DNA from: a virus
IMG/VR virus record: IMGVR_UViG_3300009285_005341
Span: 1-49,622 of that record
DNA: 49,622 bases
Reading direction: 5' to 3' (one strand)
Both the position numbers and the translations under genes were made by a program. This document shows positions 11,422 through 38,619 of the stretch, one piece after another. A model generated the notes under the pieces. The model made no database searches and was not told the DNA's origin. It saw only the letters and a program-made list of their open reading frames with translations. Each line of letters opens with the position of its first letter. The stretch's first letter is position 1.

Positions 11422-12657
11422 TTAAATCTCCTTATCACCAATGTAGATAACCTTTCGGTCCCTACCGCTGTTAGGTATTTCTATCAAGCCTGCAAATTTA
11501 AAGCCTGTAAGAATCTCTGCTAACCGTCGCGGTTCTGCATCGGCCATGAATCTGGCGTAGAGCTCGTCTGATTGTACTGATCGATCAATAGTCATCTTGG
11601 ATCGCTCTCGGATGAACTCCAGCATTGCAGATTGTACACTGGATAACGAACTAGCGCCTAGTCCACTAAATGTTTCAAGCATCTTTTCTTCAACTTGCTT
11701 CAACTCATACTCAGCACGATCAAGGTCTTCAACTGTCATTAGCTTGTCGTTGCTACGTGCAGCACACATTATCATACAAAGCTTCATTAAATGAGAAGCT
11801 CGCCTAGAGTAGTAGCTGGCTAGCTTACCGTTGGCAACTGTGTCAGGAACAGTGCCATTTTCATAACGGCTACTGAACTCTTTGAAGAACTGCTCAGTGA
11901 TAGAAAACAATCCAGCTAAGCTTTTTATTACAAACAAGTCGTTAACTAGCTCTTTGTGCAAGTTTTTCTTTGCCGATCTATCATTGTAAGCTATAGCTAG
12001 CGGTGATATGCGCTTTCCACCACTCTTCTCATTAACGAATATCACACGGCTAGCAAAGCCACCACCGACTACGTCAGGCAATGATTCCTGAAGCGACAGT
12101 GGTGTAGTAGCGCCGATTACATTTAGCCAAACACCCACTATTTCTTCACGTCCGCGACCGACAGTGTCACGGTCAGTATTGTCTTGACAGTCGTACCAAT
12201 CGCAGAGATTGGCTAATAATTCTTGCTGCCCGTAACCAAGAAATACAGTAAACTCCTCACTAAACACAGTCAGTGAAGAGTGCTGTACTGGTACGGCTGG
12301 TCCGTCCTCCAACTTTACCATCGTAGCTTTGGTTGAGTTGGCTAGCTCTTTAGCCAATGCTTGTAATGTTACAGCAGAAGCGCTCGTCGCCACTTGAACT
12401 TCACGTAATAAGGCCCGACCTGGCCTCATAGCAGTTCCTTTGCGTGCAGTGCCACTAGGTCCAACAAGCACTATAAACATGTTAGGATATATTTCACCTT
12501 CACACCAATAAGTAAAGCACTTGCGTTGCAAACATGCTGCTATAAGGCCTATTCCTACCCACTTATGATAAGATTGTGGAGGCTCTGTAACGTGAGTATA
12601 TTCCATATAAGCGTCGAGCCAGTTAGACAATAAGCGTTTCCTAGCTGGCACGATCAT
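11422..12657 (-). CDS. DUF3987-type phage ATPase (helicase/primase-associated)
   Basis: Protein of 411 residues. GAGGAGG lies 6-7 nt before the ATG at 12657, which is therefore preferred over the ATG at 12672. It has a Walker A motif at about residues 66-76 (GPSGTARKGTA), preceded by the helical YHKWVGIGLIAACLQRK segment typical of DUF3987 proteins. A conserved Asp/Glu-rich middle and a C-terminal winged-helix-like region follow. This family is found in phage replication modules and is thought to be a helicase or ATPase partner of primases. The gene overlaps the polymerase gene by 17 bp, so the two are probably co-translated. Helicase activity is inferred, not visible. Confidence 0.7.
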   Translation of the reverse strand: MIVPARKRLLSNWLDAYMEYTHVTEPPQSYHKWVGIGLIAACLQRKCFTYWCEGEIYPNMFIVLVGPSGTARKGTAMRPGRALLREVQVATSASAVTLQALAKELANSTKATMVKLEDGPAVPVQHSSLTVFSEEFTVFLGYGQQELLANLCDWYDCQDNTDRDTVGRGREEIVGVWLNVIGATTPLSLQESLPDVVGGGFASRVIFVNEKSGGKRISPLAIAYNDRSAKKNLHKELVNDLFVIKSLAGLFSITEQFFKEFSSRYENGTVPDTVANGKLASYYSRRASHLMKLCMIMCAARSNDKLMTVEDLDRAEYELKQVEEKMLETFSGLGASSLSSVQSAMLEFIRERSKMTIDRSVQSDELYARFMADAEPRRLAEILTGFKFAGLIEIPNSGRDRKVIYIGDKEI

Positions 12658-15151
12658 ATAGCGCCTCCTCAAGTGCTGTAACAGTCGAGCGCATATCGTC
12701 GATTATAGCAACCTTTCTCAAACCTTTTGGATTGCTACTGCTATACTTGCCTTTGTTCCATCCAACGGAGAATCCTACTGGAATCACAAATTCTGTACCG
12801 TTGGCGGTCAGCGGACGTTCTAATGACTCCTTTATTCGAATGCAGCATTCACCAAGCAGTGGAATGCCTTCAGACACGAGAAACTCGGAACAAGCACTGT
12901 CATGAACTTGATCTAATAAGTGCAACTCCCTTGCACAGTGATACTTATTGAGCTCATAGTATATGAACTCTATTCCGTGCAAGTTAACTTTATTCCCTAC
13001 AGTTGATTGTGGAATGTAAGAGTAAGCGCTTCTGAACAGATCATCTCCCCAATGATCTAGGAAGGTTCGCTTTCGTCCAAGCAAGTCAACTAGCGTTCTA
13101 TTACGTCCTAGCTGCTTTCTGATAAGTTCATGACCAACAAGAATTTCATTGTAAGCCCGGAAGTAGCTTTCACGTATCATCTTTGCCATTGACTGCTCCA
13201 TACGATTCTTGATTGCGAACGTTACATACCCTAAGTCATAGTTGAACGCATGGTTAGCACGCTTACCGACAGTTCGCTCACTCCAGTTTCCAGGTCCGAT
13301 TACTTCACCTGAAGGTGAAATAGCTGAACCGCTCACATCAGAGATTTCACCTTCAGGTTTTCCCAAGATTAGTGATGCAGTCCTGCGATGCACATCTATA
13401 CCATTTTCAAAGGCTTCTATCATAGCTTGAACACCCCAGATATAAGCTACAATACGGTTTTCAGCTTGTTCCAAGTCAAAGTTTACCAGGCAGTAACCAG
13501 GACTTGCAACTAAACAGTTATTTATTTCTTCTATTGCAGTCTGCATATTACCGCCAGTCCCAAAGATAGTCTTACGGGAGGACAAACGTGATCCTGCACC
13601 GACTGGATCATAGGCGCATCGCATCCTACCGTCGTCATCAACAGTGGTTGTAAAGTAAGTGCTTATTCGCTTCGTTAGATGACGAACGTCAAGAACAATT
13701 TTAGCTTCGTGTGATTGCTGCGTGGTTGACAGTCGTACCATAGCATCGTGGTCAGTTGTAACACTGCCGCCCTTACGGTAAGGCTTGTAGCCTTTCTCGA
13801 TGTAGAAGTATGTAGCCAACTGTTTTGGGCTATTGAAGAATGTACATACATCGTCCACTGATTTACCACGTGCAAACTTACACTGATATTCTAGAAGCTT
13901 CTCCTCAAGCTCCCGTTTTGCATCAACGCAGAATTGCTCCCTCAGAGCCAAATCCAACTTGAAACCGCGTCGTTGGATAGCTAGCAAAGGTTCAATCAGC
14001 CGACACTTATGCAGAAAGTACTTAGTTAGCTTGGCTTCATCAAGCAAAAGTTGCTGTTCATCAAGTATGTCGAGAATAAAAGCGGAGTCTTTACAATTGT
14101 AGAGTGCGAACTGATTGTCTGATGCTTCCCTTGTCTGCCAACGCTTGCCATCACCTTTGTAGTAAGGTTCATATAAATACTGCGATGTTAAGAAGTCTAG
14201 CCCTTTAGGAAAGTCAGGATACAGCACGGCTTGAGCTATCATAGTATCGAGAATATTCTTCGTTACAATCCCGTACTTGTGAAGTAGAAAGAATGCATCA
14301 AACATGAAGTTCTGTCCAACCTTCACTATCGCCTCATTCCTAAGTAGCGCACCAAGTTCTCTCATTATGGCAGCTTCATGCTCAACAGTATACTTGCTGA
14401 CAGCATCCAAACCGTGGTACTGTAGAAGCGGAATGCACATAGCTTCACTCGATGACACTGCTAGCCCTATATGTGAAAGCTCAGCCATTGGTGAATCTCT
14501 GATGTAAGTTACTTCAATGTCGACGCCTACACGTGGCTGACATTTACAATACAGCAGAAATTCTATAGCTTCATCGAAACTTGGATTAGTGGCAAAATCA
14601 CGTCTTGTTGGAGTGCGAAGCTTAACGTTGCCTGCCAGCTTCTGAGCCTTCTCCAAATCCATAGTTATGAAATATTTGTAGTTGGCTAACCCAGTACGAT
14701 TAGCGAAGCTTGGATGCAGTGATACCACTACAGTGCGATCTCTCAACAGTGTGCACGGAAGCACTGAGCCTCTCCACTTGGTTATGCCGTGCATACCGGT
14801 CAACACGTACATAGGTACATTGCCTAAGGCTACAAACACCTTAGATGTAGTCTGCTCCAGTTCGTGCTTAAGCCGTCTGACGGCCTTTTCGTATTCGTCA
14901 GATGTTGCTGCTTCTCCTTTCGAGTTAAAACTTATAAACGGTTTGATATCGTTTAACTTAGGGTGAAAGTCAAAGACATTGGTGATGTAGCACTCAGGCC
15001 GGACTATACCGGCTCCCGACAGACATTGGTCGAGGAGTTGGCCAGCAACGCCAACGAACGGACGGCCTAGCCGTACTTCGTCAGCGCCGAGTGCCTCACC
15101 TATTAAGACGACTCTAGCGTCCTTTGGTCCCTCGCAATGACGGTTAGACAT
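12641..15151 (-). CDS. Fused UDG-like domain, 3'-5' exonuclease and family A DNA polymerase
   Basis: Replicative DNA polymerase of 836 residues. The start at 15151 has AGGAGG eight bases upstream and follows the preceding stop by 2 bp. Residues 1 to about 180 form a uracil-DNA-glycosylase-superfamily domain: GEALGADEVRLGRPFVG, then ITNV, then SLHPSFANR. The cysteines that hold the family 4 iron-sulfur cluster seem absent. An exonuclease domain follows (GVDIEVTY; VGQNFMFDAF; YNCKD, a YxxxD motif III). The polymerase domain has motif A (NFDLEQAENR), motif B (GKRANHAFNYDLGY) and motif C (DQVHDSACSEF, with HDS where most have HDE). The UDG-like part may recognise uracil or only bind DNA. Confidence 0.9.
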   Translation of the reverse strand: MSNRHCEGPKDARVVLIGEALGADEVRLGRPFVGVAGQLLDQCLSGAGIVRPECYITNVFDFHPKLNDIKPFISFNSKGEAATSDEYEKAVRRLKHELEQTTSKVFVALGNVPMYVLTGMHGITKWRGSVLPCTLLRDRTVVVSLHPSFANRTGLANYKYFITMDLEKAQKLAGNVKLRTPTRRDFATNPSFDEAIEFLLYCKCQPRVGVDIEVTYIRDSPMAELSHIGLAVSSSEAMCIPLLQYHGLDAVSKYTVEHEAAIMRELGALLRNEAIVKVGQNFMFDAFFLLHKYGIVTKNILDTMIAQAVLYPDFPKGLDFLTSQYLYEPYYKGDGKRWQTREASDNQFALYNCKDSAFILDILDEQQLLLDEAKLTKYFLHKCRLIEPLLAIQRRGFKLDLALREQFCVDAKRELEEKLLEYQCKFARGKSVDDVCTFFNSPKQLATYFYIEKGYKPYRKGGSVTTDHDAMVRLSTTQQSHEAKIVLDVRHLTKRISTYFTTTVDDDGRMRCAYDPVGAGSRLSSRKTIFGTGGNMQTAIEEINNCLVASPGYCLVNFDLEQAENRIVAYIWGVQAMIEAFENGIDVHRRTASLILGKPEGEISDVSGSAISPSGEVIGPGNWSERTVGKRANHAFNYDLGYVTFAIKNRMEQSMAKMIRESYFRAYNEILVGHELIRKQLGRNRTLVDLLGRKRTFLDHWGDDLFRSAYSYIPQSTVGNKVNLHGIEFIYYELNKYHCARELHLLDQVHDSACSEFLVSEGIPLLGECCIRIKESLERPLTANGTEFVIPVGFSVGWNKGKYSSSNPKGLRKVAIIDDMRSTVTALEEALYDRAS

Positions 15152-15153
15152 GG

Positions 15154-15696
15154 CTAAGCCTCCTGTAGTGGACATTCTTCAAGCTTCACCAAGCGCTTTT
15201 TCAAACTAAGAATTTCATCCAGTATGTGTTCAATTTCAGCCTCCAAATCAGTTATCTTGCTATGAATGGTCAGAAAGTGACGATTAAGATCTATTGCATT
15301 TCTGGCATTTTCGACCAAAGACGGCTTAGTCAAAGATGGTACATCAGATAGTTCAAAGTATACTATTATACCATGCTCTTGTGCAAAGGCTACCTCTTTA
15401 TCCGCGCCGCTGGAACGACTTAGTAAAGCAACACTGTCACACATAGCTAGTAGCTTTTCATCGTATTCTAGCCACTTTTCATAAGTTATAAAGTCTATAC
15501 AATGCGTAGCATTATTACGCTCATGAATAAAGTGTGATAAATGTGGACAGATAGGTGTCCAGCCATTAGAGTACAAGTGCAGCCATGCATCAATAGCAAG
15601 ATTTACATTTCTCAAGACATCTTCCGGTGTTTCAGCCGAGTACGGTCCTGCAATGTAGATAAGATTATTAGGAAACTTAACACGTTCGAATGTCAT
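15154..15696 (-). CDS. DUF4406 / nucleoside deoxyribosyltransferase-like protein
   Basis: Protein of 180 residues with AGGAGGAG before the start; its ATG shares bases with the TGA of the upstream exonuclease gene (ATGA). The N-terminal IYIAGPYSAETPE motif, a following Asn-helix, PICPHLSHFIH, a YEKWLEYDEKLLAMCD helix and the SSGADKEVAFAQEHGI segment match the nucleoside 2-deoxyribosyltransferase superfamily (DUF4406 branch). Such phage proteins probably cleave or sense modified nucleosides or nucleotides. A coiled helix at the C-terminus (about 135-175) is an addition to the domain. Substrate unknown. Confidence 0.7.
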   Translation of the reverse strand: MTFERVKFPNNLIYIAGPYSAETPEDVLRNVNLAIDAWLHLYSNGWTPICPHLSHFIHERNNATHCIDFITYEKWLEYDEKLLAMCDSVALLSRSSGADKEVAFAQEHGIIVYFELSDVPSLTKPSLVENARNAIDLNRHFLTIHSKITDLEAEIEHILDEILSLKKRLVKLEECPLQEA

Positions 15697-16790: not shown

Positions 16791-18143
16791 TTATCCATAA
16801 GATTTGTACTCTCCTATCTTTGATGAAATTACTCGATTGGCGAACTGTCCTTTATAGCGCTCTGAATTGTCGAATCCAACTGCAGCACAATTAAGATTGG
16901 CAGCTGCAAGCAAAGTGTTTCCTGATCCAGCGAATGGTACTAAGATCTTAGCACCAGGATTGCAGAAGCACGCAATCAAGGTTTGCATCAGTTCTACCGG
17001 CCGTTCAGTTGGATGAATACGGTTGTGAGTTGTCTTAAAATTGAAGACATTTCCTGAGGCATATTGCTTTACCAGCTGCGCCGTTGGCATCTTACAATAG
17101 AAGAACGGTTCAACGGCATTTGCGAACACATAGAGTGGTGATCTAGCGTTAGCTACAGGCTTCGACCAGAATGCAGGCATACTCGGTTTGAAACCAGCTT
17201 CTACAATTATTTCTTTCATAGCTTCGTACCAAGGATGCAAAGCAAACCACAGCACTAGCCAGCCATCGCTGCGCAGTTTCTTCTTAGACTCCAGAACCAC
17301 GTCACGTACAAGTGACAGCCATTCCAATGGATCGAAGTTGTCGCTATCAAATACATCTTTCTTAGCTTCGCTCAGTATTTCCGAAGCTTCGAAGTCTACA
17401 CCGTACGGTGGATCAATCTCCACCAAGTTGTAAGTATTATCAGGAACAGCTTGCAATCCCTCCATAACGTCACAGATTATGTAAGAGTCAACTAGCATAT
17501 GCTTTTGTTTATCTTCGGGAGTTAAAGTTGTACGAGCCAAAACTTTAGCGGCTGCCTTTTCGGTTAGCTCATCTTTGACTGTAATGTAAAGCTTCTTTAG
17601 CGCTGTGGCACGCTTAGGCTCATTGTAAAGTTCTGTCGCCAACTTACGGTCATCAGGGTCAGTGATAACAGCTTGCAATAGTACATCTTCTCTTACCTTC
17701 CTTACATCTATGCCAACAAGCTCAGCCGTGTCTTTAGCTGACCAACCGACATCGCTGCCACGAATAGCCTTGCCGTGCTTTGCTTCCATAAGTTCATGAA
17801 TTTGCACGGTCAACCGTGATCGTTCTTGCCAAGACAAATCGAGTCTGTGGACATTCTCGACCAACTCCAGAGTCTTTCGATCCAACTCATTCGGCATATA
17901 AGGATAGATTACAGCCGGCACTGTTTCCCATCTCAGCGCTCGTACAGCTACCATTCGCCGTCCACCATATAGTAATGTATAGGTAGTATTGTCCTCATTA
18001 ATCATGACACCAACAGGCTCTAGCAGCCCGTTAGTTGTCAAGCTTTGCATCAGCTCGTTAACGTCACCGTAGTCCGTCCGTGCGCGAACATCCTCACGTA
18101 CAAGTGCTACTGAAACTTGATTCATTTGTTGCTCGATGCTCAT
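16791..18143 (-). CDS. ParB-like nuclease domain fused to N4/N6 DNA methyltransferase
   Basis: Protein of 450 residues with AAAGGATAG before the start, which follows the upstream stop directly. Residues 1 to about 125 are ParB/sulfiredoxin-like: the LLYGGRRMVAVRAL signature, then ELVENVHRLDLSWQE. The middle resembles the ParB DNA-binding helices. The C-terminal half is an amino-methyltransferase with motif IV DPPYG at residues 244-248 and the later SAM-binding motif FAGSGN at about 404-409 (beta-type order). The HPTERP segment preceding motif I is typical. Phage ParB-MTase fusions are generally thought to protect phage DNA from restriction; the recognition site cannot be read from sequence. 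Confidence 0.85.
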   Translation of the reverse strand: MSIEQQMNQVSVALVREDVRARTDYGDVNELMQSLTTNGLLEPVGVMINEDNTTYTLLYGGRRMVAVRALRWETVPAVIYPYMPNELDRKTLELVENVHRLDLSWQERSRLTVQIHELMEAKHGKAIRGSDVGWSAKDTAELVGIDVRKVREDVLLQAVITDPDDRKLATELYNEPKRATALKKLYITVKDELTEKAAAKVLARTTLTPEDKQKHMLVDSYIICDVMEGLQAVPDNTYNLVEIDPPYGVDFEASEILSEAKKDVFDSDNFDPLEWLSLVRDVVLESKKKLRSDGWLVLWFALHPWYEAMKEIIVEAGFKPSMPAFWSKPVANARSPLYVFANAVEPFFYCKMPTAQLVKQYASGNVFNFKTTHNRIHPTERPVELMQTLIACFCNPGAKILVPFAGSGNTLLAAANLNCAAVGFDNSERYKGQFANRVISSKIGEYKSYG

Positions 18144-21621: not shown

Positions 21622-21651
21622 CACGGCAACTCTTAAATTTTCTTGTGGGGG

Positions 21652-21723
21652 CGAGACCGACGGGATTCGAACCCGCGCCTCTGGTTCAGCTAGCGCAACG
21701 CTCTACCCCTGAGCTACGGCCTC
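21652..21723 (-). tRNA. tRNA-like gene with weak anticodon stem (reads AGC if real)
   Basis: Acceptor arm GAGGCCG/CGGTCTC with discriminator G, positions 8-9 TA, D arm GCTC-AGGGGTA-GAGC, and a perfect T arm GCGGG-TTCGAAT-CCCGT are all present with standard spacing. The anticodon arm is abnormal: the 5-bp stem would pair TTGCG with AACCA, only two of five pairs. The 7-nt loop CTAGCTG puts T at position 33, AGC at 34-36 (Ala) and T, not a purine, at 37. No CCA is encoded directly after the discriminator. It is either a degenerate tRNA or one recruited for another role such as RNA processing. It lies 19 bp after the gene ending at 21743. Confidence 0.6.
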
Positions 21724-21742
21724 GCCTTTACTTGTTACTGGC

Positions 21743-22255
21743 TCAGCTAGCGCCAAGTTTCTTTCTTACAAGTGCCAGCATTGCTTCGAGCTCCGTTTGA
21801 GTGAGCTCTCCCTTTTCGATCTTGTTTTCCATGTCGGTGACAGTTATTACTCCGATACTTTTGGCGCGTACACCAGGACGGATGCTTTCAAGCGCTTTTT
21901 GACAATCAGCCTCGGTTCCACCGCGGTTCATTACGTTACGGATCGGTGTAGCCATCCTCACGGCCCAAGTAGCAGTAGCCAGATCGAACACAGCATCAGC
22001 TCCCCACTTCGCAACGGCTGCATCAAGGTTAGCACCGAATGGAAACTTAGCAGTAAACTTGCAGCACTTGTACTTCCCTGGCTGGAATTCGGCAGAGTTC
22101 GAATCCATTCCACGTTCGGCTTTCGGAGATCTCACAACGGTGACGACAAAGTCGCCTTCCATAGTTTCAGCTTCGATAGCCTCGCTTTCGTCGTTGTGAA
22201 TTGTTTCGTCAGTCAGCTCTTGGTCATTAAAGTCTACAACGGGTTTCGATTTCAT
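21743..22255 (-). CDS. Early protein of unknown function
   Basis: Protein of 170 residues. AGAAAGGAG lies before the ATG at 22255, preferred over 22291. The N-terminal 40 residues are acidic and probably disordered (DDE/E-rich). A compact domain follows (GDFVVTVVRSPKAERG, KYKCCKFTAKFPFGANLDAAVAKWG, VRMATPIRNVMNRGG). The C-terminus (MENKIEKGELTQTELEAMLALVRKKL) is helical. It is next to the recombination genes and could be a DNA-binding or SSB-type accessory, but I do not recognise it. Its last bases (CTTGGCGCTAGCTGAGCC) nearly repeat part of the adjacent tRNA-like gene. Confidence 0.6.
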   Translation of the reverse strand: MKSKPVVDFNDQELTDETIHNDESEAIEAETMEGDFVVTVVRSPKAERGMDSNSAEFQPGKYKCCKFTAKFPFGANLDAAVAKWGADAVFDLATATWAVRMATPIRNVMNRGGTEADCQKALESIRPGVRAKSIGVITVTDMENKIEKGELTQTELEAMLALVRKKLGAS

Positions 22256-22315: not shown

Positions 22316-22492
22316 TCACTTCCAACATTTTAATGCTTCTAAGAAAGTCATATCTGGCGTAGCTTCGTTTGGAATGCTTGTAGTTGCGTATGCACCTAGC
22401 CTGATGGCGCACCAGTAGACTAGCCTCTTTGGTAATCTAAGAGCGATCCACAAACAGATTATATCTAGAGCTTTGCTCAAAGATTCGTTCAT
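22316..22492 (-). CDS. Small hydrophobic-helix protein
   Basis: Protein of 58 residues beginning MNESLSKALDIICLWIALR and continuing LPKRLVYWCAIRLGAYATT, ending with a KCWK tail. GAAAGGTAG lies 8 nt before the start. The first helix is hydrophobic. Similar small proteins with an LPKRLVYW-type stretch are, to my memory, common unnamed phage ORFs. It is the first gene after promoter P1 and the folded RNA at 22518-22581, so that structure could control it. Confidence 0.6.
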   Translation of the reverse strand: MNESLSKALDIICLWIALRLPKRLVYWCAIRLGAYATTSIPNEATPDMTFLEALKCWK

Positions 22493-22512
22493 AATACTTA
22501 CTACCTTTCATA

Positions 22513-22612
22513 AAAATGCGACTATCGCTTTGGGGATTCCTGATGAAGATCAGGTAGTCGGCCACGACTAGCGATAGTCGCAAGTGCAAATAGCTTGTGT
22601 CATGGCCGATTG
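22513..22612 (-). ncRNA. Candidate structured small RNA or leader attenuator
   Basis: Transcription from P1 should start near 22611. The RNA then contains GCGACUAUCGC (22571-22581) pairing with GCGAUAGUCGC (22518-22528). These enclose two perfect 6-bp hairpins, UAGUCG/CGACUA with loop UGGC (22555-22570) and CCUGAU/AUCAGG with loop CUUC (22539-22554), which makes a three-way junction. The closing stem is followed by AUUUUUAU, as in an intrinsic terminator. CGACUA and UAGUCG each occur twice, so an alternative pairing of neighbours is possible. The element is either an independent RNA of about 100 nt or a switchable leader of the gene at 22492. Confidence 0.6.
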
Positions 22613-22617
22613 CATCA

Positions 22618-22645
22618 ATTATAACACGAATTTATCCATTGTCAA
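22618..22645 (-). promoter_or_regulatory. Promoter P1, consensus sigma70
   Basis: On the minus strand TTGACA (22640-22645) and TATAAT (22618-22623) are both perfect, with a 16-bp spacer. It overlaps the stop of the upstream gene at 22632. Its upstream block, GCTCAG...ACTGGGACTTGACA, is shared with promoter P2 six kilobases away. Confidence 0.8.
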
Positions 22646-28734: not shown

Positions 28735-28763
28735 ATTATATCATCAATCGGCCGTGTTGTCAA
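28735..28763 (-). promoter_or_regulatory. Promoter P2, consensus sigma70
   Basis: On the minus strand TTGACA (28758-28763) and TATAAT (28735-28740) are perfect, with a 17-bp spacer. The upstream sequence GCTCAGTCCTCACTGGGAC parallels that of P1 (GCTCAGCCAATACTGGGAC), which suggests a shared regulator or activator site. Confidence 0.85.
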
Positions 28764-28790
28764 GTCCCAGTGAGGACTGAGCACTTACGG

Positions 28791-29121
28791 CGTAATTGAC
28801 GTAATTGGTGTAAACAGGCTTTCGGCGCTTTCGGCGCTTTCGGCCGTAATTGTTAATCGATTGACTTTAATCTGCAACGAAACGTTGCAATTTTGGCCGT
28901 AATTGTAATGTAATCGTGCAATTACGGCTGTAATCTAGTAGCAGTGTTTTCGCCCCCCATGGCATGGAGGTGGGGGTCTTTTATATATTTTTTTTTTTAA
29001 GACTACTACCTACTACTACAATCATATTAAGATAGGCCTTAAACCCCATATGCCAAGGGGGTAGAAAACCATGCTACCAGAATACGGCGACTACGGCAAT
29101 TACACAATTACGCCGTAATTG
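28791..29121. other. Candidate replication origin with CGTAATTG iterons
   Basis: CGTAATTG occurs at 28791, 28800, 28845, 28898 and 29114, and as CAATTACG at 28919 and 29105. Other features are three perfect tandem copies of GCTTTCGGC (28818-28844), a TGCAACG-AAA-CGTTGCA inverted repeat (28873-28889), a GCCGTAATTG/CAATTACGGC inverted repeat (28896-28928) and an AT tract (28979-29000). The rest of the 558-bp gap 28706-29263 holds no convincing gene. Iterons plus an AT-rich tract are typical of origins; the initiator is unknown. Confidence 0.5.
28953..28998 (+). terminator. Possible rightward terminator next to the iterons
   Basis: CCCC and GGGG arms enclose a CCAT-GGC-ATGG hairpin, followed by GTCTTTTATATATTTTTTTTTTT-type T-rich sequence. 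It would stop rightward transcripts before they run antisense into the gene at 29264. The hairpin has a bulge, so strength is uncertain. Confidence 0.4.
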
Positions 29122-29263
29122 GTGAAAAATTTGGGTTTCTGGCAATGGCTCCACATGGCTCCATAACGATCCACAAGGTTCTACTTGCGGGCCAGTGCGA
29201 GCTCCGTCAAGCTCCGTCAAGCTCCGATTGCGATTTCAAGTGAAGTGGCGTTCAGCCCTCGGT

Positions 29264-30438: not shown

Positions 30439-30467
30439 TTGACAACCTAGCCATTCTATGTTATAAT
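30439..30467 (+). promoter_or_regulatory. Promoter P3, consensus sigma70, rightward arm
   Basis: TTGACA (30439-30444) and TATAAT (30462-30467), both perfect, with a 17-bp spacer. Start of RNA near 30474 leaves a very short leader before the AAAGGG ribosome site and ATG at 30487. It could drive the whole rightward arm. Confidence 0.9.
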
Positions 30468-37273: not shown

Positions 37274-38619
37274 TGAGACAAGTGCTGATCACTCTCATGG
37301 TGTTGTTGCTGACCATGCCGCTGATGGCTCAGGTGGATGAGCCTGACATAGCGAATATCCGTCTATACAATGATGGGAATGCGCCGATTGGAGCAATTGG
37401 TAGCAGCATTATCAGCACGTTGCCGCGCTACTTTGAGGATGACGGTGATCAGTACGATGCCTCCGTGCCGGGCTGGCGTGTGCAGACAAGCATTTCAATG
37501 TCTTACTTTGGTAGTGAATCCTATCCATACATTTTGCTTGGTGTGTGGTTCAAGGCTGCTGGAAGTAAAGCTTTACTCGATAGTGCGGCATGGTTTGAGA
37601 TTGATTCAGAAGCCTTCTCGTTAGCACCAGACATTTACTACAGCAGATCGTATGGTGCAAGGAAAGTATTCGGTCTTGGGAGTGAGGGAACTTGGGTCCA
37701 ATTTAAGTGGGTAATAGTGTGGGGTGAGAGTGCTGGGCAGAGTGAGACGCTGGAATCTCCCAAGATCGAGCTGGTTGCTTACATTCCTCCCACCCCTACT
37801 TCAGTGGTTCTCACCCCCACGCTCACGCCTACATTCACGCCCACGCTCACGCCGTCAAGCACGCCGACGCCATCCCCGACCGCGACCTCTACCATGACCG
37901 GGACAAGCACGGCGACTAGCACTCCGACCGTCACTTCGACTGGGACGCAGACTCCAACGAATACGCCGACGCAGACTCCGACATTCACGGCGACGCCTAC
38001 GCCGACTTACACTTACACGCCCTCACCGACGCCATCCAGCACGCGGACGAGTACACCGACCGCGACGCCGACCCGGACGCCCACGAGTACGCATACGCCT
38101 ACCATCACGCCGACCGAGACACCTACTGTCACTGGTACTACTACACCGACGGATACTCCGACCATCACGCCGACCTTCACGGAGACGTCGACGCCCACGA
38201 TTACTCCAACGTGGACGAGCACTCTCACAGTCACGCCGACCTTCACGGAGACCGCTCTGCCGTCTCCCACGAATACCTTCACCCCGACGGAAACGCTCAC
38301 GCCGACCGCGACAAGCACCTCGACGCTTACGCCCACTTCGACGCCTACCTTCGTGGATACACCGACGATTCCGCCCAACACGCCGACACCCGCACCCACG
38401 AATACAAATACGCCGACTGCGACAAATACGCCGACGGCGGCTCCGACTCCGACTGCAACGCCGGAATTCACGAACACGCCAACGGACACCCCCACGAGTA
38501 CGGTGACGCCGACATTCACCCCTGTACCGACAGCGACTTCAACGCCACAATTGTTTCCGATATACCTCCATGGGCCAGATGGCCGTATCTGGGGAATCGT
38601 GAGGACTGCGAGGGTCTGA
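37273..38619 (+). CDS. Exported protein with long T/P-rich tail
   Basis: Protein of 448 residues. The start shares a base with the previous stop (TAATG); upstream codons are rejected because they would delay the signal peptide. Signal peptide [21 protein letters not shown] phage-like AT-richer domain (about 21-170) precedes some 255 residues of Thr/Pro/Ser repeats ([20 protein letters not shown] and so on). It ends [20 protein letters not shown]. The repeat tract is encoded by a GC-rich ACG/CCG array and probably forms an extended stalk, possibly O-glycosylated. Confidence 0.6.

What the first reader, a model, noticed from the sequence alone, without database searches (positions are those of the whole stretch)
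22513..22645. Promoter plus three-way-junction RNA plus U tract: a candidate new small RNA or leader switch
Seen: a perfect TTGACA/TATAAT promoter on the minus strand, then an 11-bp closing stem with two perfect 6-bp hairpins inside, then AUUUUUAU. CGACUA and UAGUCG each appear twice, so the 5' half can instead fold as GCGACUA/UAGUCGU, leaving the terminator stem broken. Inference: either a free RNA of about 100 nt that terminates itself, or an attenuator before the 58-residue gene at 22492. I know no phage riboswitch with this layout.
Basis: partly seen in the sequence, partly recalled or inferred. Interest (0 to 1): 0.82.

Follow-up and report, generated by a model that had tools for sequence, protein, structure and literature searches.

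The report
Structured leader RNA of phage gene
In an uncultured tailed phage, a perfect promoter is followed by an unusually strong folded RNA ending in a terminator-like U run, in front of a small gene and a lineage-conserved replication-region gene; it is most likely the regulatory leader (attenuator) of that transcript, which may also be released as a 100-nt RNA.

Summary
Minus-strand promoter TTGACA-16-TATAAT (22645-22618) is followed by a ~100-nt RNA whose closing stem is 13 bp (reader: 11), encloses two hairpins and ends in UUUUU. It crosses the closing stem, so the RNA could form a large pseudoknot: the strongest such site in 1.6 Mb of related phage DNA, and never reached in shuffles. 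Rfam has no match.

The relatives give the context. The next conserved gene (21746-22252, "gene169", unknown function) has a strong promoter directly upstream in 17 of 35 relatives (1 of 120 for neighbouring genes). Its upstream region is unusually structured across the lineage, and in one subgroup it holds a different leader fold whose closing stem has compensatory changes at 8 of 13 pairs. So the element most likely is a structured 5' leader of the p58-gene169 transcript. Because it carries a terminator-like end and no other promoter precedes gene169, attenuation is the best mechanism, with a free ~100-nt RNA as its short product.

No close homolog exists in the collections, so its own fold has no covariation test. 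What it senses is unknown. New variant of a known kind.

The parts
22618..22645 (-). perfect sigma70-type promoter TTGACA-16-TATAAT with extended -10 TG; predicted start about 22611
   Evidence: equivalent promoter >=10/12 upstream of the same gene in 17 of 35 relatives
22599..22609 (-). S1 5' arm UCGGCCAUGAC
22558..22568 (-). S1 3' arm GUCGUGGCCGA (11 bp with one GU)
22570..22582 (-). S2 5' arm UGCGACUAUCGCU (13 bp; crosses S1)
22517..22529 (-). S2 3' arm AGCGAUAGUCGCA, terminator-like
22555..22570 (-). inner hairpin UAGUCG-UGGC-CGACUA of the three-way-junction form (competes with S1)
22539..22554 (-). inner hairpin CCUGAU-CUUC-AUCAGG (compatible with both folds)
22510..22517 (-). U tract AUUUUUAU; U-tail score 4.02, in the range of the terminators that follow gene169 in relatives
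22568..22603 (-). possible 11-codon uORF MTQAICTCDYR*, start inside S1, covering the S2 5' arm, stop at the S2/S1 junction; no Shine-Dalgarno (speculative)
22316..22492 (-). p58: 58-aa gene of a small phage family (LPKRLVYWCAIR motif)
   Evidence: nine homologous loci in IMG/VR, 43-54% identity
21743..22252 (-). gene169: lineage-conserved gene of unknown fold; main gene behind this promoter
   Evidence: (HMM E=1.6e-32)

Best explanation
The element is the 5' leader RNA of a middle/replication transcript of a lytic-type tailed phage: promoter 22645 -> leader 22611-22510 -> p58 -> gene169 -> (tRNA-like gene) -> PD-(D/E)XK nuclease, Sak4-like ATPase and onward. The 13-bp stem S2 plus UUUUU at the end of the leader acts as a conditional intrinsic terminator. 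Part of the transcripts stop there, giving a stable ~100-nt RNA, and part read through into p58 and gene169. The upstream arm S1 can pair with the segment that otherwise makes an inner hairpin, so the leader can fold as a three-way junction, as an S1 hairpin, or as a large pseudoknot holding both long helices; the balance sets read-through or mRNA stability. Shown: promoter, helices, U tract, gene context, conservation of promoter and gene, and a covarying structured leader of the same gene in a related subgroup. Inferred: that termination happens, that it is regulated, that the folds interconvert. Unknown: the signal (uORF translation, binding by the gene169 product or another protein, or none, i.e. 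fixed partial termination).
For: Promoter 12/12 directly followed by the structure. Fold far beyond chance. Gene169 is conserved in 40 loci of the lineage, and a promoter of >=10/12 lies within 250 nt upstream of it in 17/35 relatives versus 1/120 for exo, Sak4, MTase and ligase genes (Fisher p 4e-12), so this promoter belongs to gene169. No promoter >=9/12 between element and gene169, so gene169 needs read-through. Stem/U-tail quality equals that of the terminators after gene169 in relatives. The 200 nt upstream of gene169 is more structured than upstream of other genes: z<=-2 in 15/35 versus 13/101 (p 4e-4). In 13 relatives (L121-L133, 11 distinct) a different large leader lies directly before gene169, with 8 of 13 closing-stem pairs showing changes on both sides, 0/500 shuffles reaching the covariation score, and slid controls far below.
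Against: No homolog of this particular RNA was found, so neither its fold nor its function has covariation support. Relatives' leaders have different sequences and folds, and several are unstructured. In group L121-L133 the promoter lies further upstream with a small ORF before the RNA. The U tract is short (five U) and the stem encloses 40 nt, which may weaken termination. No transcript data.
Confidence: 0.5

Rival explanations
1. A dedicated small RNA gene: promoter, ~100-nt pseudoknotted or three-way-junction RNA, efficient terminator. The product acts in trans (antisense or protein-sponging) and p58/gene169 are expressed from upstream transcripts.
For: Compact promoter-fold-U-tract unit; terminator quality equal to bona fide ones; RNA of ~100 nt with z -4.8.
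Against: The promoter matches the position of the gene169 promoter in relatives. Transcripts from upstream would cross the same terminator. No target stands out: the best RBS duplexes are unremarkable and the longest exact match is 7 nt for eight genes, gene169 among them. No homologous RNA anywhere.
Confidence: 0.2
2. A stabilising or translation-controlling 5' UTR structure without transcription termination, in the manner of the T4 gene 32 pseudoknot operator, perhaps bound by the gene169 product.
For: Pseudoknot potential upstream of a replication-region gene; structured regions upstream of gene169 in the lineage; in L121-L133 the start region itself (AACUGGGAGA..CCAGUG) lies in an invariant hairpin.
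Against: A U tract follows the stem directly; the stem ends 11 nt upstream of the AAAGG motif and does not occlude it; p58 lies between leader and gene169; gene169 has no SSB-like (OB) fold match.
Confidence: 0.2
3. DNA-level operator: four CGACTA/TAGTCG half sites (three at 10-bp intervals) just downstream of the promoter bind a repressor or ParB-like protein, and the RNA fold is a by-product.
For: Half sites 10 bp apart in alternating orientation; the phage has a ParB-methyltransferase fusion protein.
Against: S1 and the full 13-bp S2 with its U tract are not explained by half sites; no clustering of the 6-mer elsewhere in the window, including the other perfect promoters.
Confidence: 0.06

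Closest known systems
Intrinsic-terminator leader attenuators (trp-type and riboswitch/protein-controlled attenuators)
   Same: strong promoter, ~100-nt leader with mutually exclusive helices, terminal stem plus U run ~25 nt before the first gene
   Different: no known ligand motif, no Rfam match; terminator stem is the closing stem of a 40-nt multibranched loop; possible pseudoknot; uORF without Shine-Dalgarno
T4 gene 32 translational operator (PMC535899)
   Same: pseudoknot-capable leader upstream of a highly promoted replication-region gene; operators diverge between related phages and some lack the pseudoknot
   Different: T4 pseudoknot is ~28 nt followed by a less structured >40-nt region with UUAAA/UAAA repeats and the start site; here ~95 nt, with a U tract, and the gene product has no OB fold match
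Phage sRNAs with three-way or multi-hairpin folds (phi29 pRNA, lambda OOP; from general knowledge)
   Same: short phage RNA from its own promoter with a self-terminating end
   Different: no sequence or covariance-model match; no phi29-type context tested or seen; linked to a downstream gene

Membership tests
Leader attenuator with intrinsic terminator | promoter immediately upstream of the leader | tested here: met
   12/12 promoter 22645-22618
Leader attenuator with intrinsic terminator | stem followed directly by a U tract, before the first gene | tested here: met
   13-bp stem, UUUUU, U-tail score 4.02
Leader attenuator with intrinsic terminator | downstream genes depend on this promoter | tested here: met
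   by sequence only: no promoter >=9/12 in between; conserved gene169 promoter in relatives
Leader attenuator with intrinsic terminator | alternative (anti-terminator) fold that competes with the terminator stem | tested here: inconclusive
   S1 competes with the inner hairpin and is the nested MFE, but it can also coexist with S2 as a pseudoknot
Leader attenuator with intrinsic terminator | premature termination in vivo | not testable with these tools
   needs RNA ends
T4 gene 32-type autogenous operator | 5' pseudoknot in the leader | tested here: inconclusive
   strong potential, no covariation data
T4 gene 32-type autogenous operator | controlled gene encodes an SSB | tested here: not met
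   no Pfam/PHROG or fold match for gene169; AlphaFold model shows strands then helices, no OB fold match
Any Rfam family | covariance-model match | tested here: not met
   none at gathering or at E<=10

The most novel reading that the evidence does not exclude
Gene169 of this podovirus-like lineage is controlled by a family of cis-acting leader RNAs kept by position and function but not by sequence or fold (a pseudoknot/three-way-junction attenuator here, a covarying multibranched leader in L121-L133). In the window the leader would be a pseudoknot-gated terminator, possibly controlled by translation of an 11-codon uORF spanning both arms.
Probability: 0.15. Interest if true: 0.7.

Novelty: new variant of a known kind. 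Interest (0 to 1): 0.45.

Why it matters
Phage leader RNAs that gate replication-module genes are rarely described outside model phages. If confirmed, this gives a defined lineage and gene in which rapidly diverging leader RNAs can be compared, a covarying one (L121-L133) as a testable entry point, and a pseudoknot-capable terminator of unusual stability.

Tried and rejected
Exact and degenerate DNA searches for the RNA in IMG/VR, GTDB genomes and phage records found nothing (the one weak hit is a chance match in a microvirus). Homologs of p58 have no similar RNA in front. A class-wide enrichment of 'long stem enclosing >=25 nt plus U tract' elements was not supported: 347 real versus 229-303 in shuffles, though such sites are enriched directly after gene169 (p 2e-4). 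L016 35567-35663, with the same 11/13-bp crossing helices, folds as one long hairpin instead and is not upstream of gene169. 3WJ-like elements at L002 3618-3710 and L030 7796-7869 resemble the layout but lie after gene169 or after Sak4. An SSB identity for gene169, my working label in the scripts, was dropped after the structure search. Antisense pairing of UAGUCG to the gene169 start (CGACUAUG, 22255) is a 7-nt match no better than chance.

Full report
What is there. The window is an IMG/VR record of 49,622 bases. On the minus strand a perfect promoter, TTGACA-16-TATAAT with an extended -10, lies at 22645-22618. The predicted RNA starts near 22611. Its segments are: UCGGCCAUGAC (22609-22599), UGCGACUAUCGCU (22582-22570), GUCGUGGCCGA (22568-22558), a hairpin CCUGAU-CUUC-AUCAGG (22554-22539), AGCGAUAGUCGCA (22529-22517), then UUUUU. 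These two helices cross.

How it can fold. Three folds are possible. (b) The nested minimum, an S1 hairpin plus the small hairpin, -35.4 kcal/mol, z -4.8. (c) A pseudoknot with both long helices; a rough estimate with published pseudoknot penalties recalled from memory gives about -44 kcal/mol (hand calculation, indicative only). As a pair of crossing helices the site has a stack sum of -51.1. Fourteen shuffles of the whole window reach at best -42.9, and 1000 shuffles of the element at best -32.9. It ranks first in 1.6 Mb of related phage DNA read on the matching strand. A caveat by reasoning: 13 bp is more than one helical turn, so during transcription the full pseudoknot needs S1 to open or the 3' end to thread.

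Whose leader it is. Close relatives do not exist in the collections. An alignment of the UDG-DNA polymerase fusion reached a lineage of distant relatives, with conserved order gene169 - (ligase) - nuclease - Sak4 - ParB-methyltransferase - polymerase. Gene169 (window 21746-22252) occurs in 40 loci (window E=1.6e-32). A strong promoter lies directly upstream of it in 17/35 relatives, against 0/35, 0/32, 1/34 and 0/19 for nuclease, Sak4, methyltransferase and ligase genes (p 4e-12). The window's promoter is therefore the gene169 promoter. In the window it is separated from gene169 by the folded RNA and by p58, a 58-aa gene of a widespread small family.

Leaders in relatives. The 200 nt upstream of gene169 are more structured than those upstream of other genes: mean z -1.98 versus -0.88, -0.74 and -0.42; z<=-2 in 15/35 versus 13/101. 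Some of this may be terminators of preceding genes. In the subgroup L121-L133 a large folded RNA lies directly before gene169. Its 13-bp closing stem has changes on both sides in 8 pairs across 11 distinct sequences, with 97% of cells paired in the whole structure, 0/500 shuffles reaching the covariation score, and slid controls below half. That RNA differs in sequence and fold from the window's and has no Rfam match, so the link is positional and not one of demonstrated homology.

Terminator. In most relatives a canonical intrinsic terminator follows gene169. None was detected around the window's gene169; instead the window's terminator-like stem stands before p58. Its stem (13 bp) and U-tail score (4.02) fall in the range of those terminators. 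As no promoter of at least 9/12 lies between it and gene169, gene169 and the genes behind it need read-through. That makes conditional or partial termination the most economical mechanism.

Mechanism. Best reading: a leader attenuator that yields a ~100-nt RNA when it terminates and the p58-gene169 mRNA when it does not. What tips the balance is not known. One concrete possibility is the 11-codon uORF MTQAICTCDYR* (22603-22568), which starts inside S1, covers the S2 5' arm and stops at the junction: a ribosome on it would block S2 and favour read-through. It has no Shine-Dalgarno, so it stays speculative. Autogenous binding by gene169 protein is another; its predicted structure has no fold match and is not an SSB by these tests.

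Limits. No RNA data, no close homolog, no covariation for the window's own fold. The promoter, the gene context and the extreme pairing potential are solid; termination and regulation are inference.

Noticed in passing
window 21649-21724 (-): tRNA-like gene between gene169 and the nuclease gene; Rfam tRNA match 49.5 bits, but ARAGORN reads a four-base anticodon (agct), i.e. an enlarged anticodon loop. A tRNA-like sequence, read by eye, also follows gene169 in L043.
   Followed up: partly
L121-L133, directly upstream of gene169 (e.g. L123 2285-2500): Large (~150-220 nt) leader RNA without Rfam match, covarying closing stem, invariant UAACA/UGUUA hairpin and an invariant hairpin holding the GGGAG motif and GUG start of gene169.
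   Followed up: yes
L030 7796-7869 (+): Three-way-junction-like element (16-bp closing stem, UUUUUU) directly before the gene that follows Sak4; same layout as the finding.
   Followed up: partly
window 28763-28735 (-) and 30439-30467 (+): Two further perfect TTGACA-17-TATAAT promoters, pointing left and right, probably the early promoters.
   Followed up: no
window 28750-29200 (-): Non-coding stretch rich in repeated AATTACGG/CGTAATT motifs upstream of the leftward early promoter; origin or operator candidate.
   Followed up: no
window 12641-15175 (-): DNA polymerase A fused to a uracil-DNA glycosylase domain, with many distant relatives in IMG/VR.
   Followed up: partly
window 16791-18143 (-): ParB N-terminal domain fused to an N6/N4 DNA methyltransferase.
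   Followed up: no
window 37779-38519 (-): Repetitive ORFs of GVxVGVFVGV type on the minus strand, probably the antisense of a repetitive region.
   Followed up: no
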